A program made the position numbers and the translations under genes. 64,000 nt of DNA, taken from contig NZ_OY759719.1 of NCBI RefSeq assembly GCF_963662555.1, positions 2,066,985 to 2,130,984 on the forward strand, read 5' to 3'. Of this stretch, positions 1-64,000 are shown one piece after another. The stretch comes from Thiomicrorhabdus sp. GTDB lineage: Bacteria > Pseudomonadota > Gammaproteobacteria > Thiomicrospirales > Thiomicrospiraceae. The notes beneath the pieces are model-generated. The model did not search any database, was not told the DNA's origin, and saw nothing but the letters and a program-made list of their open reading frames with translations. The first letter of the stretch is position 1; each line of letters begins with the position of its first letter.

Positions 1-272
1 TGCTCAATGGGCGTGGTAATTTTTTGTAAATCACTCCAAACACCAATATTTTGCAAAAAGACTTGTGATCCTTTTGAAATAGCAAGCACTCGGCCATCAA
101 ATGAATTTTTCACATCTGAGAGATCATTCTCTTCTGGCAAATAACGCTCAGCCAACACGACTTTTTTACCTTGCTGAGACAAGCCTATTGCAAGCATTAA
201 ACCAACAGGACCTCCTCCCGCAATAAAAACATCTGCGTGAGTTTTTTTAGTTTGATTGGTGTTATTTGTCAT
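1..272 (-). CDS. ubiH: UbiH/UbiF-family FAD monooxygenase, N-terminal part
   Basis: Cut by the left edge of the window; about 90 N-terminal residues are present, starting at an ATG read from 272. A Rossmann FAD-binding motif GGGPVG lies at residues 19-24, followed by the acidic end of the second strand (LAERY) and DGRVLAIS, which resembles the conserved motif of the UbiH/UbiF/Coq6 hydroxylases. These enzymes hydroxylate the ring of ubiquinone precursors at the inner face of the membrane. It follows pepP by 76 bp on the same strand, matching the E. coli order ygfB-pepP-ubiH-ubiI, so UbiH is the likely member. Most of the protein is missing, so UbiI or UbiF cannot be excluded. Confidence 0.82.
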   Translation of the reverse strand, partial: MTNNTNQTKKTHADVFIAGGGPVGLMLAIGLSQQGKKVVLAERYLPEENDLSDVKNSFDGRVLAISKGSQVFLQNIGVWSDLQKITTPIE

Positions 273-348
273 AAATGTATTTGCTCAAATTTATTTTCAA
301 TTACCAAAAGAGATAAAGTGAAATTAGCAGAACCTTAGTCCTGACACG

Positions 349-1665
349 TTACTCTTGACAAGATGCCATCCATTGCTCAATCTCGTTAACGGTTCTTGGT
401 AAGCCTGTTGTTAAAACCTCATTACCCGTTTGTGTAACAAGCACATCATCTTCAATACGAATCCCAATATTGTGCCACTTACTATCAACATTTTCGTGTT
501 CTGCTGAAATATACAGGCCAGGTTCAACTGTCACCACCATACCTGCTTCAAAATCTCGCCATTGCTGGTTAACTTTATATTCGCCCACATCATGTACATC
601 CATACCTAACCAGTGGCCAGTACCATGCATAAAAAAGTCTTTATAAGCTTCTGATTCAATCAGCTCATCCACATCACCTTGCAAAATATTTAATTTTACC
701 AGGCCTGTTGTCAACACCTTAACCGATGCCTGATGGGCTTGATCATAACTGCCCCCAGGTTTAATGGCTTGAATGGCTGCTTGCTGAGCATCTAAAACCA
801 GCTCATAAAGCTCTGCTTGAGGTTTTGAAAACTTACCACTGGCAGGAAAAGTTGTGGTGATATCTCCAGCGTAACTTTGCCATTCGGCACCTGCATCAAC
901 CAATAACAATGATTGTTTATTAATTTTTGAACGGTTCTCTGTGTAATGCAAAATACAGGCATTTTCAGCAGAAGCTACAATTGAGCTAAATGCAACCCGC
1001 GGTGACCCTTGCTTTACAAAAGCAGACTCAAGCTCAGCTTGAACTTGATATTCATAATCACTATTTAAAACCGCTTTCATCGCTGCTAAATGACCACTTA
1101 CCGAGATTTGAGCCGCTTTACGCATATACTCAATTTCTTGCTCAGATTTAAACACTCGCATTTCATGAAGAATTTTATCTAAATCACAAATATTAGATGG
1201 AGCAGAAATACCTTTACGAACCTTTTGCTTTAGCAAACCAATCCAATCATTTAAAGATTCATTCCAATCAGCAAGATGAGAAAAACTGATATAAATTGAC
1301 TCTATGTTTTCAAGAAGTTCAATTGCTTTTTCATCAAGCTCGGTAATTGACCAGGCCTGGTCAATTAATAAAGTTTTACTTGCCGCATCAACACCTAAAC
1401 GTCTTCCTTGCCAGGTTTCTTGCTCTGGATCTTTTGGACGCAAAAAAAGCACACTTTGCGTGTTATCTTGCTTAATTAAGAATAGAACGGAGTCAGGTTC
1501 AGTAAAACCGGTTAAATAAATAAAATCACTATCCGCTCTAAAAGGAAATTCTACATCGCGATTTCGAATTTGCTCCTCACCAGAAGCAATAATCGCAACA
1601 CTGTTGTTAGGCATTTTTTCTAGTAAAGATTGGCGGTTTTTTTGATAAAAAAGGGGATTATCCAT
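349..1665 (-). CDS. pepP: Xaa-Pro aminopeptidase (aminopeptidase P)
   Basis: 438 aa, close to E. coli PepP (441 aa). It removes N-terminal residues that precede proline, in the cytoplasm, with two metal ions. The N-terminal half is the creatinase-type domain (residues about 1-165). The C-terminal pita-bread metallopeptidase fold shows the metal ligands: LLVDAGAEW and YAGDITTTF (two Asp), the HGTGHWLGMDVHD His region, a Glu in VTVEPGLY and a Glu in GIRIEDD. It sits between ygfB and ubiH, as in E. coli. Two copies of the window's repeated palindrome fall in it: a near copy at about 699 and a 24-bp perfect palindrome at 1344-1367 encoding QAW. Confidence 0.95.
   Translation of the reverse strand: MDNPLFYQKNRQSLLEKMPNNSVAIIASGEEQIRNRDVEFPFRADSDFIYLTGFTEPDSVLFLIKQDNTQSVLFLRPKDPEQETWQGRRLGVDAASKTLLIDQAWSITELDEKAIELLENIESIYISFSHLADWNESLNDWIGLLKQKVRKGISAPSNICDLDKILHEMRVFKSEQEIEYMRKAAQISVSGHLAAMKAVLNSDYEYQVQAELESAFVKQGSPRVAFSSIVASAENACILHYTENRSKINKQSLLLVDAGAEWQSYAGDITTTFPASGKFSKPQAELYELVLDAQQAAIQAIKPGGSYDQAHQASVKVLTTGLVKLNILQGDVDELIESEAYKDFFMHGTGHWLGMDVHDVGEYKVNQQWRDFEAGMVVTVEPGLYISAEHENVDSKWHNIGIRIEDDVLVTQTGNEVLTTGLPRTVNEIEQWMASCQE
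1344..1367. repeat. CCAGGCCTGG palindrome, inside pepP
   Basis: The core at 1351-1360 is the centre of a perfect 24-bp palindrome, the longest copy in the window. In the pepP frame it reads D-Q-A-W-S. Confidence 0.9.
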
Positions 1666-1747
1666 CGATTTACTCTTTTACTGAATCTTGTTTGTGACTT
1701 AGGCACATTTCAATCTGATTTTTACGTTATTTTATGTATAAGTTGTT

Positions 1748-2335
1748 TTAGTGCAGTGTATCAGAATCAGGCATAGCATCCATAATAGGCGGTGCTTGAG
1801 TTGGATTTAACTCTTCATTAATCGTTAAAATACCCACACGCACAAATTCAACTAATTCCATAAAGTCGGCTTCTTCAGCATCAGTTAATTCTTTTGAATC
1901 ACTTAAACCTGCGACATCAATTCGCGAAATTTGACCAAAATCATCCACTAACTCTCGTACTTCTTTTGGAATCTCATTTTCTGATTCATTTAGAGCACCA
2001 ATTAGCCCCAAACCATATAGAACACCTTCACATAACTGCCCTAACATTGCGGCTCTAAACACTAAAGATTCAGAGTCATCAGGAATACAAAGATTAAGTT
2101 CAAAACCAGAACCATTCATCCCCTTATTCGTCTCTTGAAAGACTTCATCCAAAACTTTTAAAAATGACTCTTTTACCGATTTAATTTGAGCTTCTTCAAT
2201 TAGCTTTTTTATCCAAACCGCTTCTTGAATATCACTATCACCACACAATAAACCAATCAACATACCTTGTATAAAAGCAGGTGACTCGAGTTCTGGAAAA
2301 GGTGCAATCACCTCATTGACTTGATCAAAATCCAT
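1748..2335 (-). CDS. ygfB: YgfB/UPF0149 family protein
   Basis: 195 aa, the usual length for the YgfB family. It is an acidic, mostly helical cytoplasmic protein. Family features visible are an early FPELESPAFIQGMLIGLLCG stretch, a central EGVLYGLGL segment with a Cys just before it (GQLCEGVL), and ADFMELVEFVRVGILTINEEL near the C-terminus. The family's biochemical role is poorly defined; in Pseudomonas, YgfB has been linked to beta-lactamase regulation. It is transcribed with pepP (82 bp downstream) and is divergent from zapA, the standard gammaproteobacterial arrangement. Start ATG at 2335 has an AAGAGA-like site upstream. Confidence 0.88.
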   Translation of the reverse strand: MDFDQVNEVIAPFPELESPAFIQGMLIGLLCGDSDIQEAVWIKKLIEEAQIKSVKESFLKVLDEVFQETNKGMNGSGFELNLCIPDDSESLVFRAAMLGQLCEGVLYGLGLIGALNESENEIPKEVRELVDDFGQISRIDVAGLSDSKELTDAEEADFMELVEFVRVGILTINEELNPTQAPPIMDAMPDSDTLH

Positions 2336-2936: not shown

Positions 2937-2942
2937 TATAAT
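2937..2942 (+). promoter_or_regulatory. -10 box of the 6S RNA promoter
   Basis: A perfect TATAAT lies 8 bases before the predicted 5' end of the 6S RNA. No convincing -35 hexamer is visible at the usual spacing. Confidence 0.6.
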
Positions 2943-6137: not shown

Positions 6138-6307
6138 TCATCTATGTTTAGCAAGGTTAGATATCTGTTCATTACACTCATAAAAATTCCGCCTAACATG
6201 CAATTTATTTCTTGCTACCAACTCAATATGTGGTGCAATTGCAACAATTCTAATTTGATACACTATCACACATGAAACCAGCTCAAATTTGCAACAATTT
6301 ATCCAAT

Positions 6308-7531
6308 ATGACTCCCGAAACGCTTGTCTCACAAATTAAACAGTGGGGAAAAGAACTTGGTTTTGCAGATATTGGTATCTCTGATATTCAGCTATCAGCT
6401 TATGAGGCCGATTATTTTAACTGGATAGGTGAAAATTTTCATGGCGAAATGGCTTATATGGAGCGGCACGGAACAAAACGTACTCGCCCAAACGAACTAG
6501 AGCCGGGTACAACCGCCATTATTAGTGTACGCATGAACTATTTTGACTCTAATTCTAGTCATGCTACTCAGCAACTGCATTCCACCGATAAGGCTTATAT
6601 ATCACGTTATGCATTAGGTAAAGATTATCACAAACTCATGCGTAAACGTTTGCAGGCTTTAGCCAATAAAATTGATGACGTTACTGAAAACTTTCAATAT
6701 CGGGCTTTTTCAGATAGTGCTCCCGTACTTGAAAGGCCGATTGCTGAAAAAGCGGGGCTTGGTTTTATTGGTAAAAACAGTTTGATTATTCATCCTAGAG
6801 CTGGATCTTGGTTCTTTTTAGGTGAAATATACACCAACCTTAATTTACCAGTTGATGCCCCTTTTACCAAACAAGGTTGCGGACCGTGCAACGCGTGTAT
6901 TGTAGAGTGTCCAACCCAAGCAATCGTTGATAATGCGGTTGTTGATGCTAGGCGTTGTATTTCTTATTTAACGATTGAGTTTACAGGTTCAATTCCAACC
7001 GAGTTCAGAGCGTTGATGGGTAACCGTATTTATGGTTGTGATGATTGCCAACTTGTTTGTCCGTGGAATAAATTTACCGAACCAACAAATGAATCTGCGT
7101 TCAAAACCCTGAATGACATGGATTCTGCTACACTTTTAGAACTTTGGGAGTGGACCGAAACCGAATTTATGAAACGTTTTGAAGGTTCAGCAATTCGCCG
7201 TATTGGTTATGCACAGTGGAATCGTAATTTAGCGGTTGCTATTGGCAATATGCAAAGTACGCAGCAAAATACAAATCTAGCCATCACTGCATTACAAAAC
7301 AAACGAGGGTTAATCAGTTCTTTAGTAGATGAGCATATTGATTGGGCTTTAGAACAATTATCAAAATATAATTTTACCAGGCCTGGTAATTTAGCTGAAC
7401 AAGACCTTGATCTAAATCAAATTGAACCAACACAAATAGAATTGAATCAACAAAAACAAGATGCAAACTTAAAGAGCTTGAATTCAATAAAGCCCTTTAT
7501 TGCAAAAAAATACTACTTACCTAAACATTAA
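6308..7531 (+). CDS. queG: Epoxyqueuosine reductase
   Basis: 407 aa from ATG 6308; an in-frame ATG at 6272 would add 12 residues unlike the family, so I prefer 6308. QueG carries out the last step of queuosine synthesis in tRNA using cobalamin and two [4Fe-4S] clusters. The cluster ligands are visible in CGPCNACIVECP plus a downstream CISY, and in GCDDCQLVCPWN. The N-terminus (SQIKQWGKELGFADIGI, HGEMAYMERHG) is typical. The last 45 residues or so form a Gln/Asn-rich tail beyond the usual end. The palindrome at 7374-7389 encodes TRPGN near the start of this tail. Confidence 0.93.
   Translation: MTPETLVSQIKQWGKELGFADIGISDIQLSAYEADYFNWIGENFHGEMAYMERHGTKRTRPNELEPGTTAIISVRMNYFDSNSSHATQQLHSTDKAYISRYALGKDYHKLMRKRLQALANKIDDVTENFQYRAFSDSAPVLERPIAEKAGLGFIGKNSLIIHPRAGSWFFLGEIYTNLNLPVDAPFTKQGCGPCNACIVECPTQAIVDNAVVDARRCISYLTIEFTGSIPTEFRALMGNRIYGCDDCQLVCPWNKFTEPTNESAFKTLNDMDSATLLELWEWTETEFMKRFEGSAIRRIGYAQWNRNLAVAIGNMQSTQQNTNLAITALQNKRGLISSLVDEHIDWALEQLSKYNFTRPGNLAEQDLDLNQIEPTQIELNQQKQDANLKSLNSIKPFIAKKYYLPKH
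7374..7389. repeat. TTACCAGGCCTGGTAA palindrome, inside queG
   Basis: A perfect 16-bp copy read in the T-R-P-G frame, in the poorly conserved 3' part of queG. Confidence 0.9.
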
Positions 7532-7583: not shown

Positions 7584-8948
7584 CTATAACCTATCAAAAA
7601 TTGAACCCTGAGTTGGAGTAAACAATTTAGCGTAAAGCCTTGAAGCATAGGTATTTGTCATCCCAGCAATATAATCTGAAATAACTCTCTGCTTAGCTTG
7701 TTCGGTCTCAGCTCTTTGATATTTTTCAAACGAGTTAGATGGCAATAAAGCACTTGGGTTTGCTCTAAGTGATTTAAACAACTCCAAAACAATTAACTGG
7801 CCTTTGTATTCCATTTGTTTAACTTCAGGGATGGTAATCACATTCTTAAAAACAAAGTTTTTTAACAACTCCAAAACCGCCGTTTCACCCTCTTTTAAAC
7901 GGGCTTGATAACGCAACAATGGGTGTTCAAAATCGGTATTTTCATCCATAAAAATAGACTCGACCATAATACCTACCATTTTACTGACCGCATGTTTTCG
8001 CCCTTTTGAAGATTCACTAAACAATAAATCCGTCATTGAATCGTCCCATAAAGCGTACTTTTTAAATGAAGGGTTTTCCATCACTTCAGCTTGCCACAAT
8101 TCACGAGCGACCATCTTCATAGCAACGGCATCTTCTAAATCGTGAATACCATAAGCAATATCATCGGCTAACTCCATAATCGTAGTATCTAGTGCTTTAT
8201 ATTGGGTTTGACGATGACAGCCTTTACAGTCAATTAATTGCGTAAAACGCAATTTATCTTCTGTTGAAAATGGAGCCAAAACCCAATCAAACAGGGCTTT
8301 TTCTTCTAGATACAAGCTTTTTGGTGGTGACCAACGATTCATCTGCAAGGTTCTAAAATCATCGACTTGAGGTTCTTGCAGTTGAGCAAGGTATGTTGTG
8401 TTTGAAGCAATAACATCATTATAAATCGCAGGATACTTCATCACCCCCAAAGCCGTTCTGCGCGATAGATCTAAGCCATTTTTAGCGGTGTATTCACCCA
8501 ATTGAGCTAAGATTCTTAAGGTTTGAGCATTGCCTTCAAAGCCACCATAATGTCGCATCATATAATTTAAAGCGACTTCTCCTCCATGACCATAAGGCGG
8601 GTGTCCCAAATCATGTGCTAAACAGATGGCTTCAATCAAATAAAATGACGGTAACCATTCCATGTAATCAGCATCTTTGCCGTTTTCATTCATTCCAATA
8701 GTAATCAGTTGCTCAACCAGGCCAGATCCAATTTGGGCTACTTCCATAGAATGCGTTAACCGAGTACGATAAAAATCAGATTCACTTAACCCAAATATTT
8801 GAGTTTTAGCTTGTAAACGCCTAAACGAAGCTGAATGAATTACTCTAGCTCTATCACGTTGATAAACAATACGTGCAGGCCTGGATGGCAAAGATTGTAA
8901 ATAATCTGAATACCGTTGAGTCCACAGCTGTGTTTCTATTGAATCCAT
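7584..8948 (-). CDS. dgt: dNTP triphosphohydrolase (Dgt family)
   Basis: 454 aa HD-domain enzyme that hydrolyses dNTPs, classically dGTP, to the deoxynucleoside and tripolyphosphate. The HD residues are in RLTHSMEVAQIG and CLAHDLGHPPYGHGGE; a later ELADDIAYGIHDLEDA provides the remaining metal-site Asp. RVIHSASFRRLQAKTQIFG near the N-terminus is also characteristic. The start ATG has AAAGGT six bases upstream. It converges with queG across 52 bp and no terminator-like hairpin is visible there. The dGTP specificity of the E. coli enzyme cannot be assumed. Confidence 0.92.
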   Translation of the reverse strand: MDSIETQLWTQRYSDYLQSLPSRPARIVYQRDRARVIHSASFRRLQAKTQIFGLSESDFYRTRLTHSMEVAQIGSGLVEQLITIGMNENGKDADYMEWLPSFYLIEAICLAHDLGHPPYGHGGEVALNYMMRHYGGFEGNAQTLRILAQLGEYTAKNGLDLSRRTALGVMKYPAIYNDVIASNTTYLAQLQEPQVDDFRTLQMNRWSPPKSLYLEEKALFDWVLAPFSTEDKLRFTQLIDCKGCHRQTQYKALDTTIMELADDIAYGIHDLEDAVAMKMVARELWQAEVMENPSFKKYALWDDSMTDLLFSESSKGRKHAVSKMVGIMVESIFMDENTDFEHPLLRYQARLKEGETAVLELLKNFVFKNVITIPEVKQMEYKGQLIVLELFKSLRANPSALLPSNSFEKYQRAETEQAKQRVISDYIAGMTNTYASRLYAKLFTPTQGSIFDRL

Positions 8949-9448: not shown

Positions 9449-12400
9449 ATGTCCCGGAAAGGTAGTATTTCTAAAATTTTAGTTATCAGTGCACTCTTGC
9501 CAATTGCACTCTTAGCTATTGTCATAACAGCGTCACTCTATTTAATTAATCAGCAACTGACCGAACAAAAAATCAGTAATTACTCCTGGCAGTTTGATGA
9601 AATTAAAGATCGTTCGTTAAACTTTAAAAACATTGATTTCACCTTTAATAACCAACTCGATATCCAACTAGAAAACATTCATTTCTCTTCAAGTGAATCA
9701 GACTCTAAAAACGATATTTTTCCGTATTTGACTTTAAGCAAAGTTGAAATTGGTATTGTTAAAATTAATATTTTAAATTCACAGCAAAATCAAACGAAAG
9801 TGGATACTAAGCACTCTATAGATAAAACGATTGAAAACCTTAAACGTCAACTACAAAACATTCAAAACAAACCTGAATGGTTTGCATTCTTGCCTAAAAA
9901 AATAAACATTACTTCTTTTATTGTTCAAGCACCCTGCCCACAAAGCTCATGCTCAGTTAAAGGTTCAGCAGACTTAAAGATAATTAATACACATACTGAT
10001 ATTCAGGCACAAGGACACCTCAACTTTCATGACCAAGAGATTGCTAGCCCACAGTTAGAAACTCGGCTTTTAATCAAAATACCTAGCAATATAAAAAGCC
10101 ATAATGTTGCTAATGAAAGCAATGCAAATACTTCAAATAATGCATACACAGGTTTGGAATATAAAATTGATAGTGAGCTAAAGGCCGTTAATAGCAACGC
10201 AAATCTCATGCAATTTTCTCAGGCGGGGAAAATTACTGAAAAACAAAAATTACCAGTACTATCAGTACACAACCATTTTTCTGGTTTATTGCCTGGTAAA
10301 AATAATACGATTGATAAAGAGTGGCAAAACATCCAAGCCATCTATCAAAACTGGATTGGCCAGCCATTAGAGTTAGATCATCTTAATCAGTATTTGCCGG
10401 TAAAGACTCCCCACGTTAGTGCCCTCGAGAGTCAGGAGTCTGCAAATTCAAACTCAGACTTTGCTTCTGATTTTGAAGTAAAAACAAATACAACTATTCA
10501 ATTAGATTCTTTGGTAGATTCACTCACAAGTATTAAAACTGAAACAACTATCGCTGAGTTGTTGAACACCATTGCGTTTTCAAATGAAATAAAGGCACAA
10601 TTTAACGCCCCCTTTCCTATCCCATCTATTGGTTCTATTCAAGGCTCAATCAAAGCTAATCTAGCCTTTAAAAATGGCATGATCCAATCCTATGATTTAG
10701 ATGCTAATGGATTTTTTCATAGAAGCCTACCAATCGCGCTATTTGATAATCAACAAATCAAACCCTTTCAAGACTTTAAATTCTTGGCAAGCTCATCTCA
10801 AAAACAAGTAACAGAGATTGATAAACTTAACTCCTTACCTTTTAAACTGTCTATAAACTCAATCAATTCAATCAATTCAAAAAATGCGACTGATGCCGTT
10901 GCCAAACTTCAAGCAGAGGGTGTAGTTCAACTTTCTAAAACGCCAGAGTTAAACATAAATAGTGGGTTGCTAAATTTCTCGCAAGTTAATCTTGCTTTAA
11001 CAAATCAAAAATTACTCAATGAGCTATCTGGCGAGATTCAATTGAATGGCAAGTTAGATGTTTCTAATATTAATCTGCAAATACCTAAATTTAATGTAAC
11101 GGGTGTTTATTCAGATAAAGACCAAAACTTAGTTCTAAGCAAAATGCAGATTAATACAAATAATCTCATCCTGAACAGCAAACCAGCTTTGTTTTTAGAT
11201 GAAATACAAGCTTCAGCGAAGTCGATTAACATTAAAGCAGATTTGAATTATTCGCCCAAAGACAAGCAACAGATATTAATGAAGAATATCGATTTAGTGC
11301 TGTCTAATCCAAAATTAGCACCTAAATTTGATGCAAAAAATCCAAATAACACTGACCATGTTAACAAACTGAATACAAAGCAATTCACCGCTAAATATAT
11401 ATTAAAAACAGATCGCGTTGAGCAACAAAACCTACAGCCACTTGCATGGACTTTGAGAGGCAAAATTCAATCCCAGCTACCAAATACATTAAGCTCAATC
11501 AATCAACTCAATATTCAAGGCAGTGTTTCAAATAAAGCAGGCCTGGTCGTTTTTCATAATGCTTTTTATAAACCTAACAATCTATACACTGATTGGGAAA
11601 TCCCCAATATTTACCTCTTGGCAGGCAATCCAATTCAAAAAACCTTTAAAGATTGGCCTAAACTCCTCACCCTAGGAAGTGGCCAATTAAAAGCTAAAGG
11701 CAATACACAACTCAACTTATCCTCTTTAAATGATAATACCAATTTGCTAAATATCCTTTATACAAAGGCCGAAATAGATACCAAAGGTATAAGTGGCATT
11801 TATAATGAAACAACTCTAAACCAAGTAAGCAGCAAGATTAATTTAAGCTTAAATCATGGCGTTTTAAAAACAGAGTTTAATAACTTAGAAATTAAACAAA
11901 TTAATCATGGTTTAATTTTTGGTCCCACCGTCTTTAACGGAAACTACCAAACATCGATTGATTCATGGTTACAAGGCAAACTCAAATTAACGCAATTTAA
12001 TACTAAACTATTTAATGGTCAGGCCTGGTTAGACAATCAAACATTTGATTTAAGCCAACCGATTAACAGCCAACTTCATCTGTCTCAAATTGATATTAAA
12101 GCCTTATTAGAGCAATACCCATCAGCAGAAATTAAAGGTAGCGGTATTATTCATGGCAATTTACCATTTAGTCTAAACTTGCAAGAGCAGCCTTTTTTTA
12201 CTCTAGATAAAGGAGCAATCAAAGCAAAGTCTCCTGGTGGATTAATACAATATAAAGCGGCTCCGAGCATTAAACAAACTCATCAAAGTATGCAGTTTGT
12301 GTTTACCGTACTTGAAGACTTTCATTATTCTGTTTTAGACAGTAATGTCACTTATGATGCCAATAAAACATTACACTTAACACTGCATTTACAAGGTAAA

Positions 12401-19637: not shown

Positions 19638-20402
19638 ATGAAAAACCAAGTTGCACTAATCACAGGAGCATCAAGCGGAATCGGCAAAGCGACCGCACAG
19701 GTTTTGGCTAGACAAGGCGTTAAACTTATTCTTTTAGCCCGCCGAGAGTCACTGCTTAATCAATTAAAAACTGAGCTTTCTGAGTTTAGTGAGTGCCACA
19801 CTATTGCTTGCGACATCAATGACCACCCTCAATTATTAAAAGCATTTGAACAACTACCAGAGCCGTTTAAACAAATTGATATTCTCATAAATAATGCAGG
19901 CTTAGCACTGGGATTAAACCCTGCTCATCAAACGGATTGGTTAGATTGGCAAACAATGATTAATACCAACTGTCTATCATTAGCTTTTTTAACTCGCCAA
20001 ATTTTACCAGGCCTGGTAAAACGTAATCACGGACATATTATTAATATTGGTTCTATTGCCGGTAGCTATGCTTACAGAGGTGCCAATGTATATGGTGCAA
20101 CCAAAGCCTTTGTGGAACAGTTCTCAAGTAATTTACGTTCAGATTTATTAGGCACGGCAATCCGCGTAACCAATATTGAACCAGGCATGTTAAATGAAAG
20201 TGAATTCTCTTTAGTACGTTTTAAAGGTAATAAAGAACAAGCCAATCAAGTCTATGAAGGACTTGAACCGTTAAGGTCTGAAGATGTAGCAGAAACCATT
20301 CGTTGGGTATTAGCACAACCTGCTCACGTTAATATCAATAACATTGAGATAATGCCGGTACATCAAGCTCTTGCTGGCCCAACAACCATCAAAAACCTAT
20401 AA
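19638..20402 (+). CDS. Short-chain dehydrogenase/reductase (YdfG-like)
   Basis: 254 aa from ATG 19638; a TTG at 19626 is in frame but less likely. A classical SDR: NAD(P) motif TGASSGIG (about residues 9-16), LARRE favouring NADP, NNAG, and the catalytic Ser-Tyr-Lys in IGSIAGSYAYRGANVYGATKA. The C-terminal pattern (NIEPGM, FSLVRFKG, EDVAETIRWVLAQPAHVNINNIEIMP) resembles NADP-dependent 3-hydroxy acid / malonic semialdehyde reductases of the YdfG group. The palindrome at 20002-20021 encodes LPGLVK. Confidence 0.87.
   Translation: MKNQVALITGASSGIGKATAQVLARQGVKLILLARRESLLNQLKTELSEFSECHTIACDINDHPQLLKAFEQLPEPFKQIDILINNAGLALGLNPAHQTDWLDWQTMINTNCLSLAFLTRQILPGLVKRNHGHIINIGSIAGSYAYRGANVYGATKAFVEQFSSNLRSDLLGTAIRVTNIEPGMLNESEFSLVRFKGNKEQANQVYEGLEPLRSEDVAETIRWVLAQPAHVNINNIEIMPVHQALAGPTTIKNL
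20002..20021. repeat. CCAGGCCTGG palindrome, inside the SDR gene
   Basis: A perfect 20-bp palindrome read as L-P-G-L-V-K, in a surface segment just before the catalytic Ser region. Confidence 0.9.
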
Positions 20403-21106: not shown

Positions 21107-21128
21107 AATTTACCAGGCCTGGTAAATT
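21107..21128. repeat. CCAGGCCTGG palindrome, intergenic before proS
   Basis: A perfect 22-bp palindrome in the 231-bp gap between the DUF2062 gene and proS, preceded by short repeats of CCCAAAATAA. Confidence 0.9.
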
Positions 21129-40651: not shown

Positions 40652-40683
40652 ACAGGCCTGGTATTACCAGGCCTGTTTATTTA
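40652..40683 (+). terminator. Terminator-like hairpin built from two palindrome copies
   Basis: ACAGGCCTGGTA (40652-40663) pairs with TACCAGGCCTGT (40665-40676) across one base, followed by TTATTTAT. Each arm is itself a near copy of the window's CCAGGCCTGG repeat. It lies 25 bp after the DUF4395-like gene. Confidence 0.75.
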
Positions 40684-47403: not shown

Positions 47404-47443
47404 AATAACCAGTTCTGAATTACCAGGCCTGGTTATTTTTTTA
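47404..47443 (+). terminator. Terminator containing a palindrome copy
   Basis: AATAACCAG (47404-47412) pairs with CTGGTTATT (47429-47437), followed by TTTTTT. The core CCAGGCCTGG at 47423-47432 supplies part of the 3' arm. It ends the copper cluster. Confidence 0.7.
47422..47433. repeat. CCAGGCCTGG palindrome, intergenic after the copper cluster
   Basis: A 12-bp palindrome lying inside the terminator of the 171-aa gene. Confidence 0.9.
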
Positions 47444-49074: not shown

Positions 49075-49767
49075 ATGAGTAAGGAGTACCTATCTTTTCT
49101 CAACAGAAATACTTTTATGACCCAGCCCACGTACAAACCTTTATCTGGTTTATATGTCATTACTGATACTCAGTTAATGAATAGTAGCAACATCCTAGCA
49201 ATGGTTGAACAAGCACTTTTAGGTGGTGCTCAAATTGTTCAGTTTAGGGACAAAGTCAATAACCCAGCAATAAAACTTGAACTCGCCACAAAGCTCAAAG
49301 GGCTTTGCCAAAATTACCAGGCCTGGTTCATTATTAATGACGATATTCAACTCGCTAAAAATGTACAGGCTCACGGTATTCATATTGGCAAAAATGATGC
49401 TGATATTACTTTAGCTCGTGAAAAATTAGGGCCGAATGCAATAATTGGCGTGAGCTGTTATAACGATATTAATCGTGCCAAAAAAATGCAAAGTCTAGGA
49501 GCTAACTATGTGGCTTTTGGTCGTTTCTATCCATCAAAAACCAAACCTAATGCTCCACAAGCAGAAATATCTACCTTAACAATTGCTAAACAACAATTAC
49601 AGATCCCTATTGTGGCAATTGGCGGAATTACCATAGACAATGCACACCAGCTCATAGAAGCCGGAGCCGATTCTGTTGCCGTAATTCAAGGTGTCTTTGC
49701 TCATAAAGATATACAACAAAAAGCCAAAAAGATTCAGCTTTTGTTTGAGCAGAATAATCAGCATTAA
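49075..49767 (+). CDS. thiE: Thiamine-phosphate synthase
   Basis: 230 aa from ATG 49075, or 216 aa from ATG 49117, which fits the usual length (about 211) better; neither has a clear ribosome-binding site. The enzyme joins HMP-PP and THZ-P to give thiamine phosphate. Motifs: LYVITDTQL, GGAQIVQFRDK, INDDIQLA, GIHIGKNDAD, IIGVSCYND, YVAFGRFYPSKTK and VAIGGITIDNAHQLIEAGADSVAVI. No TPP riboswitch is visible upstream. The palindrome at 49316-49327 encodes YQAWF. Confidence 0.93.
   Translation: MSKEYLSFLNRNTFMTQPTYKPLSGLYVITDTQLMNSSNILAMVEQALLGGAQIVQFRDKVNNPAIKLELATKLKGLCQNYQAWFIINDDIQLAKNVQAHGIHIGKNDADITLAREKLGPNAIIGVSCYNDINRAKKMQSLGANYVAFGRFYPSKTKPNAPQAEISTLTIAKQQLQIPIVAIGGITIDNAHQLIEAGADSVAVIQGVFAHKDIQQKAKKIQLLFEQNNQH
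49316..49327. repeat. CCAGGCCTGG palindrome, inside thiE
   Basis: A 12-bp palindrome read as Y-Q-A-W-F, immediately before the substrate-site motif INDD. Confidence 0.9.
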
Positions 49768-51250: not shown

Positions 51251-51311
51251 TTACCAGGCCTTTATCACCCCCTTACGGGGTGTGATAATTTACTTTTACC
51301 AGGCCTGGTAA
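51251..51311 (+). terminator. Nested hairpin terminator after hemL
   Basis: The inner hairpin TTATCACCCCC-TTAC-GGGGTGTGATAA (51262-51288) is flanked by TTACCAGGCCT (51251-51261) and its reverse complement AGGCCTGGTAA (51301-51311). The outer arms are copies of the window's palindrome. Confidence 0.75.
51296..51311. repeat. TTACCAGGCCTGGTAA palindrome, intergenic after hemL
   Basis: A perfect 16-bp copy that forms the right outer arm of the hemL terminator; a truncated copy (CCAGGCCT) at 51254 forms the left arm. Confidence 0.9.
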
Positions 51312-52615: not shown

Positions 52616-53028
52616 GGTTTAATCATGCACTATTAAACCCTAAATAGTAAGAACATCTACGTCCGTTTGCAACAACCGTTTTCAGTAGAAATCGCATATT
52701 ATTTTCAGCGTAATTCACTACGAATTTATTTTAGTAACTAGGTTTCTTGTCATGCTTGTATAACTAACTTCCTTAATTACAGTTATACCTTAAGAAAAAC
52801 AATAACCTTTTATATTAAATATTAAAACGGAATTACCAGGCCTGGTAAACCTGTTTTTGGTTTTATATTAATTGGCATAATGGCTTTCCAAAGGCTTAAG
52901 TAACGATCTCAAACTTTCTGCTTTAACAAGTCTCTAAAGCGTTCTGCGTAAACGCTGTACGCTTCTCTTAATCGTTAATGCTAAGATATGGAGACAATAG
53001 AATAAGCTGGCTTTGACTGGAATCAATA
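52616..53028. other. Gene-free interval with one palindrome
   Basis: Contains the palindrome at 52833-52848 and otherwise AT-rich sequence. I see no gene or RNA that I can support. Confidence 0.5.
52833..52848. repeat. TTACCAGGCCTGGTAA palindrome, intergenic
   Basis: A perfect 16-bp copy in the gap between the SMR gene and the 198-aa gene, not close to a visible terminator. Confidence 0.9.
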
Positions 53029-53625
53029 ATGATTAAAACCATTTTTATAACAATTAGCACTACATTGATAGTTGCTACTTTTGTGGTATCGACATTTCTA
53101 AATGGAATCTTAGGCCTTTTTGGCCTCGCCTCTACTTCTACTAAAACACTGAATGAACTAAGAAATTCCAAACAGGTCGTTGAAAACATGAAAAAACGAC
53201 ATGCTGAGAAAAAGCTGGCTGTATCAAAAAAATATGTTAAGCGTTCAAGTCAAAAAATTGCTTCCTCAGCGGTAGCTGCTGCAACTATTGGAACAGCAGG
53301 AGTGGTAGTAACTATAGCAGGGCTTGAGGTTTATGAATATTGTGAAGATAAAAAAGAACTTCAAGAAGATGAAAACATATTGTTCAATAAGAAAGAAGAA
53401 TTCAATTTTAACGAGTGCTTAATTGCTGCAAACGAAGACTCAAAAGAAATAGTTACATCGGTAAAAAAAGCCGTACCCGAAATAGTCGATCAGGCCTGGG
53501 AAGATACAAAGGGCTTTAGCAGTGAAACTTGGGAAACAACCAAAGCAATGAGCGCCAGTGTTTGGAGTAATTCTCTAGACACGTTGGATGGTTTGTGGAA
53601 AAAATTCACGGATTGGATAAATTAG
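53029..53625 (+). CDS. Hypothetical membrane-associated protein, 198 aa
   Basis: A hydrophobic N-terminus (about residues 3-38) and a second hydrophobic stretch (about 82-105, SSAVAAATIGTAGVVVTIAG) could both span the membrane. Between them is a Lys-rich helix. The C-terminal third is acidic and Trp-rich with short repeats (VDQAWEDTKGF, SSETWETTKAM, SASVWSNSLD), like an amphipathic helix with Trp at regular spacing. No family recognised. A near copy of the palindrome (CAGGCCTGG, 53491-53499) encodes QAW in this Trp repeat. Confidence 0.65.
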   Translation: MIKTIFITISTTLIVATFVVSTFLNGILGLFGLASTSTKTLNELRNSKQVVENMKKRHAEKKLAVSKKYVKRSSQKIASSAVAAATIGTAGVVVTIAGLEVYEYCEDKKELQEDENILFNKKEEFNFNECLIAANEDSKEIVTSVKKAVPEIVDQAWEDTKGFSSETWETTKAMSASVWSNSLDTLDGLWKKFTDWIN

Positions 53626-54263: not shown

Positions 54264-54288
54264 GCCACAGAACATGCCAGGCCTGGTA
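54264..54288. repeat. Long form of the palindrome with GCCACAG arm, intergenic
   Basis: GCCACAGAACATG directly precedes CCAGGCCTGG (54277-54286). The sequence before it (ATGCTTACA about 20 bases upstream) also resembles the copy near 62590. Confidence 0.8.
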
Positions 54289-54472: not shown

Positions 54473-55867
54473 TTAACGTTCTTGTAATGCGGTAAATAAA
54501 TTTTGGTGAATACCACCAAAACTGCCATTACTCATTATCACAACGGTATCACCAGGTTGTAATTCATTCACTAACTGTTCTAACAAAGCTTCATAGCTAT
54601 TTTGTACGTGTACAGGTTGGCTAAATTGTTCTGTTGGTAATTGCCAATTCCAATCATCATCAATAAACGCATAGACGGCATCGGCTTCTTTAAAAGCTAA
54701 CGGCAAAGTCGCTTTATGAATCCCCATTCGCATAGTATTTGAGCGAGGTTCAAACACCGCAATCAATCTACCAGATTTACCAGGCCTGGTAGATTTTGAC
54801 AGTTGATTTTTCGCCCCTTTTAAAGTGGTTTCAATTGCAGTTGGGTGATGAGCAAAATCATCATAGATTTTAATGCCCTGCTTTGGACCTGATTGAACTT
54901 CGCCAATTAATGTCATTCTGCGACGAATCCCAGTAAACTTAGATAGCCCTTCTACCGCTATACGTGCAGGTACGCCACAATGAACGGCTGCAGCTACCGC
55001 GCTAAGTGCGTTTCTTACATTGTGTAATCCTGTTAATGGCCAAACCACACGCCCTAAGCAACTGCCTTGAAACATCACTTCAAACTCAGAACCATCTTGC
55101 TCATAAAGCTTATAACTCCATTCAGCACTTGAGCCTTGCTTTTCAATTGGTGTCCAGCAACCTTGTGTGATGACTTCATCTAAATTAGGTTCATAATTAG
55201 GCATAACAATCAAGCCATTGCCCGGCACCGTACGAACTAAGTGATGAAACTGTTTTTGAATATCTTTGACCGAATCAAAAATATCGGCATGGTCAAATTC
55301 AAGGTTATTAAGTACACAGGTTCTTGGGTGGTAATGGACAAATTTTGAGCGTTTATCAAAAAATGCCGTGTCATATTCATCGGCTTCTACTACAAAAAAT
55401 GGCGAATCACCTAAACGGGCGGAAACACCAAAGTTTTCTGGCACGCCGCCAATTAAAAATCCAGGGTTCAATTTAGCAAACTCTAAAATCCACGCCACCA
55501 TAGAGGCGGTTGAGGTTTTGCCATGCGTACCCGCAACTGCGACTACCCAGCGATCTTTTAAAATGTGTTCTGCCAGCCATTGTGGACCTGAGGTATACAC
55601 TTGCTGTGCATTTAACGTGGCTTCTACTGCAACGTGACCTCGGCTTTTAGCATTACCCACCACAACCGCATCAGGCTCGTGTTTTAAAAATTCAATTGAA
55701 TCGTCATCCATTACGCCAATGCCCGCTTGTTCTAATTGCGTGCTCATTGGAGGATAAATCGCTTTATCAGATCCCGTAACCTCATGCCCCATGGCTTTGG
55801 CAATTTGGGCGATACCACCCATAAAGGTTCCGGCAATGCCTAATATGTGTATTTTTTGCGGTTTCAC
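54473..55867 (-). CDS. mpl: UDP-MurNAc:L-alanyl-gamma-D-glutamyl-meso-DAP ligase
   Basis: 464 aa. Mpl re-attaches recycled murein tripeptide to UDP-MurNAc, in the cytoplasm. N-terminal IHILGIAGTFMGGIAQIAKAMGHEVTGSD, ATP loop AVAGTHGKTSTASMVAW, FVVEADEYDTAFFDKRSKFVHY, and YDDFAHHPTAIETTLKGA are all typical; the length is close to E. coli Mpl (457). The palindrome at 54778-54791 encodes TRPGK. A 28-codon frame follows the stop. Confidence 0.95.
   Translation of the reverse strand: MKPQKIHILGIAGTFMGGIAQIAKAMGHEVTGSDKAIYPPMSTQLEQAGIGVMDDDSIEFLKHEPDAVVVGNAKSRGHVAVEATLNAQQVYTSGPQWLAEHILKDRWVVAVAGTHGKTSTASMVAWILEFAKLNPGFLIGGVPENFGVSARLGDSPFFVVEADEYDTAFFDKRSKFVHYHPRTCVLNNLEFDHADIFDSVKDIQKQFHHLVRTVPGNGLIVMPNYEPNLDEVITQGCWTPIEKQGSSAEWSYKLYEQDGSEFEVMFQGSCLGRVVWPLTGLHNVRNALSAVAAAVHCGVPARIAVEGLSKFTGIRRRMTLIGEVQSGPKQGIKIYDDFAHHPTAIETTLKGAKNQLSKSTRPGKSGRLIAVFEPRSNTMRMGIHKATLPLAFKEADAVYAFIDDDWNWQLPTEQFSQPVHVQNSYEALLEQLVNELQPGDTVVIMSNGSFGGIHQNLFTALQER
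54778..54791. repeat. CCAGGCCTGG palindrome, inside mpl
   Basis: A 14-bp palindrome read as S-T-R-P-G-K in a variable loop of Mpl, about 490 bp from the long copy at 54264. Confidence 0.9.
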
Positions 55868-57273: not shown

Positions 57274-58569
57274 ATGACCGTGAATGTAGCTCAACCACAA
57301 CAGCCTAAAAATATACTTTATGCACAAGCTGGTGGAGTAACCGCCGTAATTAATGCCAGTGCTGCTGCAGTGCTTGAAACCATTCAACAACACCCCAACG
57401 TTTTTGGTAAAACCTACGCCGCTATTAATGGTATTAAAGGTGTACTTGAAGAAGATTTGGTAGATTTGTCTGATATTGACGATGCCACAATAGACCAACT
57501 TAAATACCAACCTGGAGCGGCTTTTCAAGCATGCCGTTTTGACCTTGATCCTTTAGAGCATAACCCCGAGCAATATCAGCGTGTGTTAGAAGTATTTAAA
57601 ACTTACGATATTGGCTATTTCTTGTATAACGGTGGTAATGGCTCAATGGTTACCGCTCAGAAAGTTGCTGACTATTGTTGTGAAAATGGTCACCCAGTTA
57701 TATGCGTTGGCGTAGCTAAAACTGTTGATAATGACTTAGATATCTCTCATTGCAGTCCTGGTTTTGGGAGTGCCGCAAAGTACGTTGCAACCAGTTTTAT
57801 AGAAGCCACATTAGACGTAATGTCAATGTATCAAACATCAACCAAGTTTTATATTATGGAAGCTATGGGGCGCAATACAGGTTGGTTAACTATTGCTGCA
57901 GGCCTGGTAAAGGAAGTTATCCCGGATGCTCCGTTAATCGTTTTACCCGCTGAATGCAAGTTTAATAAACAGGCTTTTTTAGATAAAGTAGACGCCTTAG
58001 TTGCCTCTAAAGGTTTTTGTGTTTGTGCGGTATCAGAAGGGTTAATGGATGAGAATGGTGAATATATTTCTATTGCCACAATTGAACATACTCATGAACG
58101 AGACTATATTCAACTGGGTGGTGTGGGTTCAACCCTTGCACACTTAGTAGGGCAACATTTAAACAGCAAAACGCATTACAGTGTTCCTGACTATTGCCAA
58201 CGCTCAGCAAGTCACTTAGTCTCTGAAACCGACTGGCAAATTGCTTACCAAGCAGGTAAAGCCTCAGTAATGGCGGCAATAAAAGGAGAACACGGTGTAT
58301 TGCCAATTGTAAAAGTGACTTCTGAAGCCCCATTTACCTTTGAATTTATTAATGTGCCATTAATTGAAGTAGCTAACCTAGAAAAAACTGTGCCTAAACA
58401 CTTTCTAACTGAAGACGGAATGGATGTAACACAACAGGCTATAGACTACTTAAAGCCGCTTGTTCAGGGCGAAAAAAGTGCACCATTTAAAAATGGTTTA
58501 CCAGACATAACACCTATAAAATTTAAAACGGTTAAACCGAAAATGCAGCAATTTATTGCCATTAAATAA
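57274..58569 (+). CDS. pfp: 6-phosphofructokinase (PPi-type family)
   Basis: 431 aa, longer than ATP-PFK (about 320). It phosphorylates fructose-6-phosphate, or acts reversibly with PPi. The fold is shown by YAQAGGVTAVINASAAAV, the nucleotide loop YNGGNGS, catalytic TVDNDLD, and MEAMGRNTGWLTIAAGL. The donor is not clear: Lys149 just before TVDND is typical of PPi enzymes, while Gly123 (GGNG) replaces the Asp of GGDD that they usually carry. AGGAAA precedes the start. A near palindrome (GCAGGCCTGG) at 57898-57907 encodes AGLV. Confidence 0.88.
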   Translation: MTVNVAQPQQPKNILYAQAGGVTAVINASAAAVLETIQQHPNVFGKTYAAINGIKGVLEEDLVDLSDIDDATIDQLKYQPGAAFQACRFDLDPLEHNPEQYQRVLEVFKTYDIGYFLYNGGNGSMVTAQKVADYCCENGHPVICVGVAKTVDNDLDISHCSPGFGSAAKYVATSFIEATLDVMSMYQTSTKFYIMEAMGRNTGWLTIAAGLVKEVIPDAPLIVLPAECKFNKQAFLDKVDALVASKGFCVCAVSEGLMDENGEYISIATIEHTHERDYIQLGGVGSTLAHLVGQHLNSKTHYSVPDYCQRSASHLVSETDWQIAYQAGKASVMAAIKGEHGVLPIVKVTSEAPFTFEFINVPLIEVANLEKTVPKHFLTEDGMDVTQQAIDYLKPLVQGEKSAPFKNGLPDITPIKFKTVKPKMQQFIAIK

Positions 58570-61724: not shown

Positions 61725-61754
61725 ACAAAAAAAGCCCGAAATTCGGGCTTTTTA
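61725..61754 (-). terminator. Terminator of the repeat lipoprotein gene
   Basis: AAAGCCCGAA (61731-61740) and TTCGGGCTTT (61742-61751) form a perfect 10-bp stem with T-runs on both sides. On the minus strand it ends the lipoprotein gene 26 bp past its stop. Confidence 0.8.
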
Positions 61755-61779
61755 TACAACTAAATGCTAAATTTAGTTA

Positions 61780-62358: not shown

Positions 62359-62768
62359 AGTGTTTTCCTAAAATATAAAACTAATAAATATCATTTGTTT
62401 AGATAATATTGTTCAAATTACTTGCTCAATACGAATCACTTAAAACCTATGCAATACAAGCAAAATGTTAATAAGTCTCCGCAGAGGAATCTCAACAATA
62501 GAATCTAAACAAAACTCAAAACTTGCGTTTATTCTAAAAAGGTTTTTTAAAACTTAAGTAACAAATAGATGACAGTTTTGTGACTTACCCTATGCTTACA
62601 AAGTTTTAGATGGCCACAGGGCATGCCAGGCCTGGTAAATATGTATTTATAAAAATAGCCCTAGTACATAAAAGCGTTTATAAACCAAATAGACGACAAA
62701 TACGCTAAAATACAAACCAAGAAAACCTTAACAAATAACCACTATTTACATACCTAAAGGGAACATCC
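62359..62768. other. Gene-free interval with one long palindrome copy
   Basis: 410 bp between divergent genes. It holds the long palindrome form at 62613-62637; the rest is AT-rich with no supported gene or RNA. Confidence 0.5.
62613..62637. repeat. Long form of the palindrome with GCCACAG arm, intergenic
   Basis: GCCACAGGGCATG directly precedes CCAGGCCTGG (62626-62635), followed by TAAAT. GGCATGCC is a second palindrome overlapping the first. Confidence 0.8.
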
Positions 62769-63608
62769 ATGCTTGTTACTCACTCAGGTCGCTTTCATGC
62801 CGACGAAGTCTTTGCCATATCAATGGTGCTAATGGTTGAAAAGCGTCAAATTACTCGAACTAGAGACGAGGAGATTATTAAACAAGCCGATATCGTTTTG
62901 GATGTTGGTGCTGAATACAATCCAGAAACATTACGTTTTGACCATCACCAAAATAGTTTTACTGAAGAACGTGACAACGGAATCCCATTTGCTACAGCAG
63001 GCCTAATTTGGCGACATTACGCCAAACGCATTTTTAATATAAAAGGGTTAAAAGGTGATTATGAAGTTGCTTTTGCAACCCAATGGGTAGATGACAAACT
63101 GATTGCCGATATTGATGCCGTAGATAATGGCATGTATTTAGATGACCCTCGCCCATCAGTTTCTCAAATTATTGCGATGATGAACGAATCTTCTGACGAG
63201 CCTGAGAAACAAGAAATTGCTTTTAATAAAGCCATAGAGTTTACTACTGAGATACTCAATAATTTTATCAAGGCGGCGATAAAAGAGGCTGAAGTCGTAG
63301 TGGAATTAGAAGAGTATGCTAAAACAGTTGAAAACGGTATTTTAGTATTAGACAAAAACTTACCTTTTAAAGATTTCATTACCTCACATCCAGAAATAAA
63401 ACGCGTCGTTTACCCAAGAAGTGAAGAGCAATTTGGTGTGTACTGTAATGGCCAAGAAAATCACTTACCTCAAAGGTTTAGAGGTTTAAGAGATACTGAA
63501 CTGAATGAAGTAACCGGTTTAACTGACACTATTTTTTGCCATAAATCAGGTTTTATGTCAGTAAGCCTTAGCTTAGAAAGTGCCCTTTTTATGGCCAATA
63601 GCCAATAA
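62769..63608 (+). CDS. MYG1-family metal-dependent protein
   Basis: 279 aa. The MYG1 (UPF0160) family pattern is clear: VTHSGRFHADEVFAISMV at the start, IVLDVGAEYNPETLRFDHHQNSF (DHH-type motif), VDAVDNGMYLD, and the end GFMSVSLSLESALFMANS-like. The fold is related to DHH phosphoesterases; eukaryotic MYG1 has 3'-5' exonuclease activity. Function in bacteria is not well defined. Nothing nearby points to a specific role. Confidence 0.85.
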   Translation: MLVTHSGRFHADEVFAISMVLMVEKRQITRTRDEEIIKQADIVLDVGAEYNPETLRFDHHQNSFTEERDNGIPFATAGLIWRHYAKRIFNIKGLKGDYEVAFATQWVDDKLIADIDAVDNGMYLDDPRPSVSQIIAMMNESSDEPEKQEIAFNKAIEFTTEILNNFIKAAIKEAEVVVELEEYAKTVENGILVLDKNLPFKDFITSHPEIKRVVYPRSEEQFGVYCNGQENHLPQRFRGLRDTELNEVTGLTDTIFCHKSGFMSVSLSLESALFMANSQ

Positions 63609-63626
63609 AACTAAACAAAAAATAGA

Positions 63627-63668
63627 AAAAAGCAATAAGTTACAAAACACCGTAAATTATTGCTTTTT
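63627..63668 (+). terminator. Hairpin after the MYG1-like gene
   Basis: AAAAAGCAATAA (63627-63638) pairs with TTATTGCTTTTT (63657-63668), and the loop contains a further TTAC/GTAA pair. The 3' arm ends in TTTTT, as expected of a terminator. Confidence 0.7.
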
Positions 63669-63867
63669 GTTACAGATCATAACCAGTATTTTCTACTATT
63701 TAGAATACAATAAATCAAAATACCCGTCTTTATAGCAAGCGTATAGATGTCCAATAGATGACGTCATCCCCTCTTTATTTATACTCAATATATAACTTTA
63801 TCATTCAAAATATGAATAAGTTAGCGTTATAATTACGTAAACTTTATTCACTAATTGAAAGATTGAC

Positions 63868-64000
63868 ATGATTCCTAAACAACCACAAAGCTTAGACCTG
63901 CATATTGGTAAAACAATCAATAAAGCCAGAAAAAAACAGAGTCTTACTATTGCTGATATAGCTGAACAATCAGGCATTAGTAGAGGAATGTTAAGTAAAA
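63868..64000 (+). CDS. HTH (XRE-type) transcriptional regulator, N-terminal part
   Basis: Cut by the right edge; about 44 residues are present. MIPKQPQSLDLHIGKTINKA is followed by RKKQSLTIADIAEQSGISRG, the first helices of an XRE helix-turn-helix (about residues 15-44). The C-terminal domain is outside the window; XRE-cupin regulators often begin like this, but that is a guess. Start ATG at 63868 has GAAAG upstream. Confidence 0.75.
   Translation, partial: MIPKQPQSLDLHIGKTINKARKKQSLTIADIAEQSGISRGMLSK

What the first reader, a model, noticed from the sequence alone, without database searches (positions are those of the whole stretch)
1..64000. Highly iterated palindrome CCAGGCCTGG across the window
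Seen directly: 15 exact copies with cores at 1351, 7377, 20007, 21113, 23766, 28987, 29990, 37451, 47423, 49317, 51299, 52836, 54277, 54780 and 62626, plus near copies (one or two core bases changed or missing) near 699, 8875, 11537, 12019, 13024, 18639, 40652, 40667, 51254, 53490 and 57898. Several extend to perfect palindromes of 16-24 bp. For an AT-rich window the chance number of a given GC-rich 10-mer is far below one. In genes it occurs in all three frames (QAW; P/AGLV; RPG) in unrelated proteins, so selection or insertion acts on DNA, not protein. Seven of the 15 exact copies are intergenic although most of the window is coding. It joins two CCWGG sites around AGGCCT. It could be a HIP1-like iterated palindrome, an uptake or packaging signal, a site for a nucleoid protein, or a product of methylation and very-short-patch repair.
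Basis: partly seen in the sequence, partly recalled or inferred. Interest (0 to 1): 0.82.

Follow-up and report, generated by a model that had tools for sequence, protein, structure and literature searches.

The report
Genome-wide palindrome, likely DNA-uptake signal
A sulfur-oxidising bacterium carries hundreds of copies of one short mirror-image DNA word, and its relatives carry different versions of the word, which looks like a self-recognition tag for taking up DNA in a bacterial family where none was known.

Summary
In detail: 15 exact CCAGGCCTGG in the window and 590 in the 2.70 Mb genome, 0 for the reversed control. The host is a Thiomicrorhabdus. The unit is really CAGGCCTG (904 copies, control 1) inside a symmetric, roughly 22-bp motif, AATTTAC-CAGGCCTG-GTAAATT. 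Of 62 family genomes, 38 carry this or a related iterated motif; 24 carry none of the patterns tested. Relatives use "dialects": CAGGCCTG without the outer C/G; ACCGGCCGGT (CCGGCCGG 1217 times in one genome); and two NON-palindromic forms, AAAAYTCAACAGGCCGGGT (core 537 times in one genome) and AAAATCTRCCAGGYTGGGG (core 334-383 times in three). Methylation is an unlikely cause: 16 of 38 carriers, including this genome, have no hit to either DNA-methyltransferase family searched, and CCAGG or AGGCCT outside the motif is not clearly enriched. Strong core consensus, an A-tract beside a GC core, many copies inside genes, gain consistent with substitution, and dialects resemble the Pasteurellaceae and Neisseriaceae uptake signals. 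Best reading: DNA-uptake signal sequences in a third family, partly palindromic. Uptake itself is untested and no receptor was found.

The parts
1351..1360 (.). exact CCAGGCCTGG, in coding ORF 349-1665(-)
7377..7386 (.). exact copy, in coding ORF 6272-7531
20007..20016 (.). exact copy, coding; motif present at the aligned place in 4 of 7 relatives
21113..21122 (.). exact copy, intergenic, upstream of proS
23766..23775 (.). exact copy, coding
28987..28996 (.). exact copy, coding; motif also at the aligned place in L011
29990..29999 (.). exact copy, intergenic
37451..37460 (.). exact copy, coding
47423..47432 (.). exact copy, intergenic
49317..49326 (.). exact copy, coding
51299..51308 (.). exact copy, intergenic
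52836..52845 (.). exact copy, intergenic
54277..54286 (.). exact copy, intergenic
54780..54789 (.). exact copy, coding
62626..62635 (.). exact copy, intergenic
700..707 (.). core CAGGCCTG with one outer base changed
8876..8883 (.). core CAGGCCTG with one outer base changed
11538..11545 (.). core CAGGCCTG with one outer base changed; core also in L011
12020..12027 (.). core CAGGCCTG with one outer base changed; core also in L011
18640..18647 (.). core CAGGCCTG with one outer base changed
40653..40660 (.). core CAGGCCTG, one outer base changed; first of two copies 15 bp apart
40668..40675 (.). core CAGGCCTG, one outer base changed; second of two copies 15 bp apart
53491..53498 (.). core CAGGCCTG with one outer base changed
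57899..57906 (.). core CAGGCCTG with one outer base changed

Best explanation
[quoted passage not shown] Inferred working: a surface DNA receptor of the type IV pilus/competence machinery prefers DNA carrying a GC-rich core next to an A-tract. Fragments with the motif are taken up and recombined more often, so copies created by point mutation accumulate over the genome (molecular drive) until density, coding constraint and drift balance. Changes of receptor specificity give new dialects, and loss of specificity lets the motif decay. In this genome both flanks match the A/T element, so the site is symmetric and has no direction. Shown: the enrichment, the anatomy, the dialects, the patchy distribution, a ComEC gene and pilin-like genes. 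Inferred: uptake, receptor and drive.
For: Copy number and consensus: 590 and 904 copies, controls 0 and 1. Perfect copies outnumber single-mismatch copies: 97 against 65 (0.07 and 2.76 expected by composition), and 62 against 13 in the CCGGCCGG genome. Of 41 sites one mismatch from ACCAGGCCTGGT, only 6 differ inside the octamer; singly mismatched octamers total 111, near the 82 expected. PMC1626085 (passages) names such a strong consensus as a puzzling trait shared by USS and DUS. Architecture: the asymmetric dialects have one A-tract, three bases, then the GC core, the A-tract positions being A in 57-90% of copies inside genes; the H. influenzae USS core reads ACCGCACTT in reverse, with AT-rich motifs on one side. 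Dialects within one family, as for DUS (PMC3630211 passages); H. ducreyi's proposed USS differs by a two-base excision (PMC1852404 passages). Placement: 90 of 150 sites coding here, intergenic enriched 3-fold; random spacing, CV 0.95 of 99 intervals. Origin: no clean block insertion of the motif in 15 aligned site-locus pairs. Inverted pairs in asymmetric dialects (4 pairs among 34 sites, 2 among 42) and preference for convergent gaps (15 of 21 intergenic sites in H. marinus), like USS terminators. ComEC passes the curated cut-off here.
Against: Two searches of an open-access library listed no uptake or transformation study in this family. ComEC is found in 56 of 62 genomes, carriers or not; of the six without it, two are carriers (G016, G017, fragmented assemblies) and four are not, so machinery does not predict the motif. 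ComP_DUS, the neisserial receptor family: 0 of 62 genomes over cut-off. The orphan pilin tried as receptor occurs in 9 of 18 carrier and 1 of 14 non-carrier Thiomicrorhabdus genomes. Known uptake sequences are not palindromic (recalled). Density (about 1 octamer per 3 kb) is below the near 1 per kb of H. influenzae and Neisseria. For the 14-mer chosen for the H. marinus dialect, perfect copies (14) do not exceed singly mismatched ones (19). The A/T flank is weak in G052 and G055.
Confidence: 0.62

Rival explanations
1. A HIP1-like iterated palindrome with an intracellular role not tied to methylation (mismatch repair, recombination, nucleoid organisation): an unknown cytoplasmic DNA-binding protein or repair process favours the site, as proposed without proof for cyanobacterial HIP1.
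For: Palindromic 8-mer core, one-off variants concentrated at the outer positions, patchy presence and replacement by other GC-rich words, all as described for HIP1 (PMC4390886 abstract and one section).
Against: Two dialects are not palindromic and carry a one-sided A-tract, which I know of in no HIP (recalled). For Chi/KOPS-like roles the asymmetric dialect should be strongly oriented; the listed plus-strand copies show only a mild unevenness (64 of 187 and 64 of 188 in the first 43% and 42% of the contig), but minus-strand places were not listed and the origin position is not known.
Confidence: 0.24
2. Methylation-driven HIP: a methyltransferase for CCWGG, GGCC, AGGCCT or the whole 10-mer, with mismatch or very-short-patch repair, creates and keeps the sites.
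For: The 10-mer abuts two CCWGG sites around AGGCCT; alternate HIPs in cyanobacteria go with a cognate methyltransferase (PMC4390886 abstract).
Against: PF00145 over cut-off in 11 of 38 carriers and 12 of 24 non-carriers; PF01555 in 13 of 38 and 8 of 24. 16 of 38 carriers have no hit to either at E 0.001 (two of these are under 90% complete), including this genome and G007, whose CCGGCCGG core holds no adenine. CCAGG, AGGCCT and GGCC outside the motif are 444/494, 82/73 and 748/1053 observed/expected (second-order Markov). Other methyltransferase families (type I HsdM, Dam-like, Eco57I-like) and Vsr were not searched.
Confidence: 0.06
3. A regulatory or terminator element: sites bound by a transcription factor or acting as hairpins.
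For: Intergenic enrichment about 3-fold; convergent gaps favoured, strongly in H. marinus; in the pooled relatives intergenic arms pair more than expected, for example 0.54 against 0.27 at the third base, part of which may come from pooling species.
Against: 90 of 150 copies lie inside genes and all gap types are used; arms do not clearly covary in this genome; hundreds of near-identical copies are unlike ordinary factor sites. Terminator use is probably secondary.
Confidence: 0.05
4. A mobile or copied repeat (REP/MITE-like) that inserts itself.
For: High copy number and strong consensus.
Against: Copies share only about 22 bp and relatives show base substitutions at the site; 4 of 15 aligned site-locus pairs have small gaps nearby, none that adds or removes the motif as a block (6 of 24 window sites had an alignment).
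Confidence: 0.03

Closest known systems
Uptake signal sequence (USS) of Pasteurellaceae, Hin and Apl types
   Same: Hundreds to thousands of copies, very strong core consensus, AT-rich element beside a GC-containing core (ACCGCACTT when reversed), coding and intergenic copies, origin by mutation, subclade dialects, terminator use (passages)
   Different: Different family and core; the window's dialect is symmetric with A/T elements on both sides; uptake bias untested; lower density
DNA uptake sequence (DUS) of Neisseriaceae and its dialects
   Same: Several dialects within one family with a partly conserved core (passages)
   Different: DUS is described as lacking flanking motifs and is read by ComP; ComP_DUS has no match over cut-off here; core unrelated beyond the trinucleotide CTG/CAG
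HIP1 (GCGATCGC) and alternate HIPs of cyanobacteria
   Same: Palindromic, iterated, replaced by other GC-rich words in some species, one-off variants at outer positions (abstract)
   Different: HIPs generally go with cognate methyltransferases; here no association with the two families searched, an extended A/T flank, and non-palindromic dialects
Chi / KOPS-type oriented chromosome motifs (recalled)
   Same: Short, over-represented, genome-wide
   Different: Symmetric here, far higher enrichment; the asymmetric dialect's plus-strand copies are spread along the chromosome with only mild unevenness

Membership tests
DNA uptake sequence (USS/DUS) | Hundreds or more dispersed copies far above composition | tested here: met
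   590/904 copies, controls 0/1; 150 vs 3.46 expected in 464 kb
DNA uptake sequence (USS/DUS) | Perfect copies exceed singly mismatched ones | tested here: met
   Perfect vs one-mismatch: D1 97 vs 65, D3 62 vs 13, D4 32 vs 20, D2 28 vs 23; not so for the 14-mer chosen for D5, 14 vs 19
DNA uptake sequence (USS/DUS) | AT-rich element beside the core (USS type) | tested here: met
   Logos of D1, D3, D4, D5, kept in coding copies; weak in G052 and G055
DNA uptake sequence (USS/DUS) | Dialects among relatives | tested here: met
   Five forms in 38 of 62 genomes
DNA uptake sequence (USS/DUS) | Competence machinery in carriers | tested here: inconclusive
   ComEC in 56 of 62 genomes, carriers and non-carriers alike; 2 of the 6 without are carriers; other competence genes not searched
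DNA uptake sequence (USS/DUS) | Known receptor (ComP) | tested here: not met
   PF16732: 0 of 62 over cut-off; this is the DUS receptor, the USS receptor being unproven
DNA uptake sequence (USS/DUS) | Motif-dependent DNA uptake by competent cells | not testable with these tools
   Needs an uptake assay; it is the defining feature, so membership is not claimed as proven
HIP1-type iterated palindrome | Palindromic iterated octamer or similar | tested here: met
   CAGGCCTG; but D4 and D5 of relatives are not palindromic
HIP1-type iterated palindrome | Cognate methyltransferase in carrier genomes | tested here: not met
   16 of 38 carriers have no PF00145 or PF01555 hit; other methyltransferase families not searched
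Dcm/Vsr-driven CCWGG excess | C5 methyltransferase and general CCWGG excess | tested here: not met
   No PF00145 hit in the genome; CCAGG outside motif 444 vs 494 expected; Vsr not searched
Chi-like recombination site | Oriented with replication | tested here: inconclusive
   The palindrome cannot be oriented; D5 plus-strand copies 64 of 187 and 64 of 188 in the first 43% and 42% of the contig, minus strand not listed

The most novel reading that the evidence does not exclude
Thiomicrospiraceae have a third, independently evolved DNA-uptake-sequence system in which the signal can be a perfect palindrome (no direction) and has switched between palindromic and asymmetric dialects, even within one genus, so that each species' genome is rewritten by the taste of its DNA receptor.
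Probability: 0.55. Interest if true: 0.88.

Novelty: new variant of a known kind. Interest (0 to 1): 0.78.

Why it matters
Sequence-preferring uptake is described from two families (introduction passage of PMC7811141). A third family of free-living sulfur oxidisers, with at least five dialects plus losses among close relatives, would let the open question of how uptake specificity arises, switches and is lost be tested by comparison and by simple uptake assays. A palindromic signal would also constrain how receptor and kinked DNA meet. If it is not uptake, it is a HIP-like system without the methyltransferase link seen for HIP1, which is also of interest.

Tried and rejected
Methylation: no association with PF00145 or PF01555. 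Hairpin or palindrome-extension: arms do not clearly covary in this genome. ComP-type receptor: no match over cut-off. Orphan pilin as receptor: genus-level Fisher p 0.019, not corrected for relatedness; absent from 9 of 18 carriers, so rejected as the general receptor. A sixth dialect suspected in G010 (AACAGCGGGT, 5 bins in 40 kb) was not among the top words in 200 kb: taken as chance. Dense repeat arrays gave false top words in G001, G031, G036, G039 and G055; binning reduced this in the genomes where it was run. Viral contigs: the 18-mer TTTACCAGGCCTGGTAAA has 0 matches, uninformative about phages of this family. Literature: the 10-mer gives 49 papers, 20 listed, none on bacterial iterated motifs by title; CAGGCCTG/CCGGCCGG with uptake gives 199 papers, 10 listed; of two Neisseria DNA-binding papers among them I opened one, where the octamer is part of a non-DUS control oligonucleotide (PMC4527729 passages); the other (PMC2885667) was not opened. 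Limits: non-carriers were tested for the dialect patterns only; 7 Thiomicrorhabdus non-carriers (G005, G009, G010, G011, G023, G030, G031) were sampled for unknown words, 40 to 200 kb each, and four short named loci without a motif (L013, L021, L023, L032) plus L026. Some non-carriers keep a weak octamer excess (for example G048-G051: 62, 64, 67, 35 against controls 12, 7, 31, 17). Gene calls for placement are my own ORF script, not an annotation. The G003 and G039 stretches were chosen where the listings showed copies, so their densities are not representative. 12 of the 62 genomes miss the 90% complete / 5% contaminated mark.
Full report
WHAT IS THERE. The window holds 15 exact CCAGGCCTGG at the stated positions and 24 copies of the inner octamer CAGGCCTG. 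Up to one mismatch gives 26 matches; shuffles give 0.57 on average and at most 3. The window lies in a 2,696,250-base single-contig genome with 590 copies of the 10-mer (reversed control 0) and 904 of the octamer (control 1). Its prolyl-tRNA synthetase is 92% identical to that of Thiomicrorhabdus sp. Milos-T2.

IS IT MORE THAN CHANCE. In 464 kb of this genome (window plus 20 stretches) the octamer occurs 150 times against 3.46 expected and the 10-mer 97 times against 0.175 (third-order Markov from motif-masked sequence). The parts are not clearly enriched outside the motif: CCAGG 444 against 494, AGGCCT 82 against 73, GGCC 748 against 1053 (second-order Markov). Spacing of the first 100 genomic copies is random (CV 0.95 of 99 intervals).

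ANATOMY. The symmetrised logo of 149 sites is AATTTAC-CAGGCCTG-GTAAATT; information falls to near background beyond seven bases from the octamer. Of 41 sites one mismatch away from ACCAGGCCTGGT, 35 differ at the two outer positions and 6 inside the octamer. The 12 kinds of singly mismatched octamer total 111 against 82 expected. Left and right flank quality are weakly correlated (r = 0.15, n = 150) and arms do not clearly covary beyond column frequencies in this genome, so hairpins are not what is kept; in pooled relatives the intergenic arms do pair more than expected, partly perhaps from pooling. By my own ORF calls, 90 of 150 sites are coding and 60 intergenic against 19.6 expected; reading frames are used 44, 32 and 14 times. 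Over the 12 genomes the coding share runs from 15 of 28 (G004) to 42 of 47 (G052).

FAMILY-WIDE DISTRIBUTION AND DIALECTS. Counting patterns in 62 genomes of the family gives 38 carriers and 24 genomes without a large excess of any tested word. D1/D2 (octamer at 236 or more copies): 32 genomes, 15 of them in the window's genus. D3: G007 has 1217 CCGGCCGG (control 22), consensus ACCGGCCGGT with weaker A/T flanks, from 72 sites. D4 and D5 are not palindromes: 42 D4 sites of G003 read AAAA-YTC-AA-CAGGCCGGG-T and 34 D5 sites of G039 AAAA-TCT-R-CCAGGTTGG-GG, each with one A-tract. The A-tract is nearly as clear in coding copies (21 of 42 D4 sites, 13 of 34 D5 sites) as in intergenic ones. In 26 more distant loci (L034-L059) the 10-mer was absent. 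On a proS tree of 26 rows the D4 species T. cannonii lies in a group of six in which T. chilensis, ZW0627 and zzn3 use D2 and T. heinhorstiae shows no motif in 21.7 kb, so switches and losses look recent; that tree is a single gene with several weak forks.

MECHANISM. Three known processes give such words: methylation-linked HIPs, uptake sequences and, much more weakly, oriented chromosome motifs (this ranking is recalled). Methylation fails the association test: PF00145 over cut-off in 11 of 38 carriers and 12 of 24 non-carriers, PF01555 in 13 of 38 and 8 of 24, and 16 of 38 carriers, this genome and G007 among them, hit neither at E 0.001. Other methyltransferase families were not searched. 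Features that mark uptake sequences were then compared with what papers say. PMC1626085 (passages) gives the reversed USS core ACCGCACTT with AT-rich motifs on one side, more perfect than singly mismatched copies, many coding copies, and origin by mutation. Here: AAATTTACC(A)GG... with A/T elements; perfect above one-mismatch in D1, D2, D3 and D4 but not for the 14-mer chosen for D5; coding copies; and no block insertion of the motif in the 15 aligned site-locus pairs, which cover 6 of 24 window sites (4 pairs have small gaps nearby). PMC3630211 (passages) describes dialects in Neisseriaceae. H. ducreyi's proposed USS differs by a two-base excision (PMC1852404 passages), much as CCAGGCCTGG and CCGGCCGG differ by loss of A and T. 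In H. marinus 15 of 21 intergenic sites lie in convergent gaps and 4 close inverted pairs occur among 34 sites, like the terminator use reported for USS. Orientation: the listed plus-strand D5 copies are 64 of 187 (G038) and 64 of 188 (G039) in the first 43% and 42% of the contig, a mild unevenness; strong orientation as for Chi is not seen but the test is partial.

WHAT IS MISSING. No uptake study in this family was listed by two searches. ComEC is confirmed here (304 bits, cut-off 190) and found in 56 of 62 genomes, carriers or not; of the six without it, G016 and G017 are carriers in fragmented assemblies and G024, G030, G050 and G051 are non-carriers. ComP_DUS is absent over cut-off. An orphan pilin-like protein of this genome has counterparts (57% identity or more) in 10 of 32 Thiomicrorhabdus genomes, itself included: 9 of 18 carriers and 1 of 14 non-carriers, so it cannot be the general receptor. 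The receptor is unknown.

NOVELTY. PMC7811141 (introduction passage) names two families with sequence-preferring uptake, and a 2026 survey of terminators reports uptake motifs in those two (PMC13020248 passages). My searches listed no report, by title or shown abstract, of an iterated motif in Thiomicrospiraceae; they cover an open-access library only, lists were capped, and I opened passages of a few papers. I call it a new variant of a known kind: uptake-signal-like sequences in a third family, including a palindromic form.

Noticed in passing
L229:3043-3600 (-), G000 C1:2586046-2586600: Gene for a prepilin-like protein of 185 aa with a strongly conserved C-terminal part (..FKATWGGSSGANYGLIAG..QLCM), patchy in the genus and with different neighbours in the three places looked at.
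   Followed up: partly
window 40653-40675: Two octamer copies 15 bp apart, each with one outer base changed; exact copies 24 bp apart also occur at G000 37841/37865 and 221431/221455.
   Followed up: no
window 51253-51308: A half-intact copy (left half complete, two bases changed on the right) lies 46 bp before the exact copy at 51299, with an inverted repeat between them.
   Followed up: no
G039 stretches (L165, L166, L185-L191): In H. marinus the asymmetric motif is concentrated in convergent gene gaps (15 of 21 intergenic sites) and forms close inverted pairs, probably doubling as terminators.
   Followed up: partly
G001 stretches L115-L118: About 38 copies of words such as GTGGATTGAAAC, which look like a CRISPR array (type not checked).
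   Followed up: no
G031 (L161, L162) and G039 (L165, L166): Dense repeated words, about 97-100 and 19-38 copies in 40 kb, that look like long tandem-repeat genes.
   Followed up: no
G052 and G055 stretches (L143-L150): In the family's genus g6 the octamer is abundant but the A/T flank is weak, so the flank may be an optional part of the signal.
   Followed up: no
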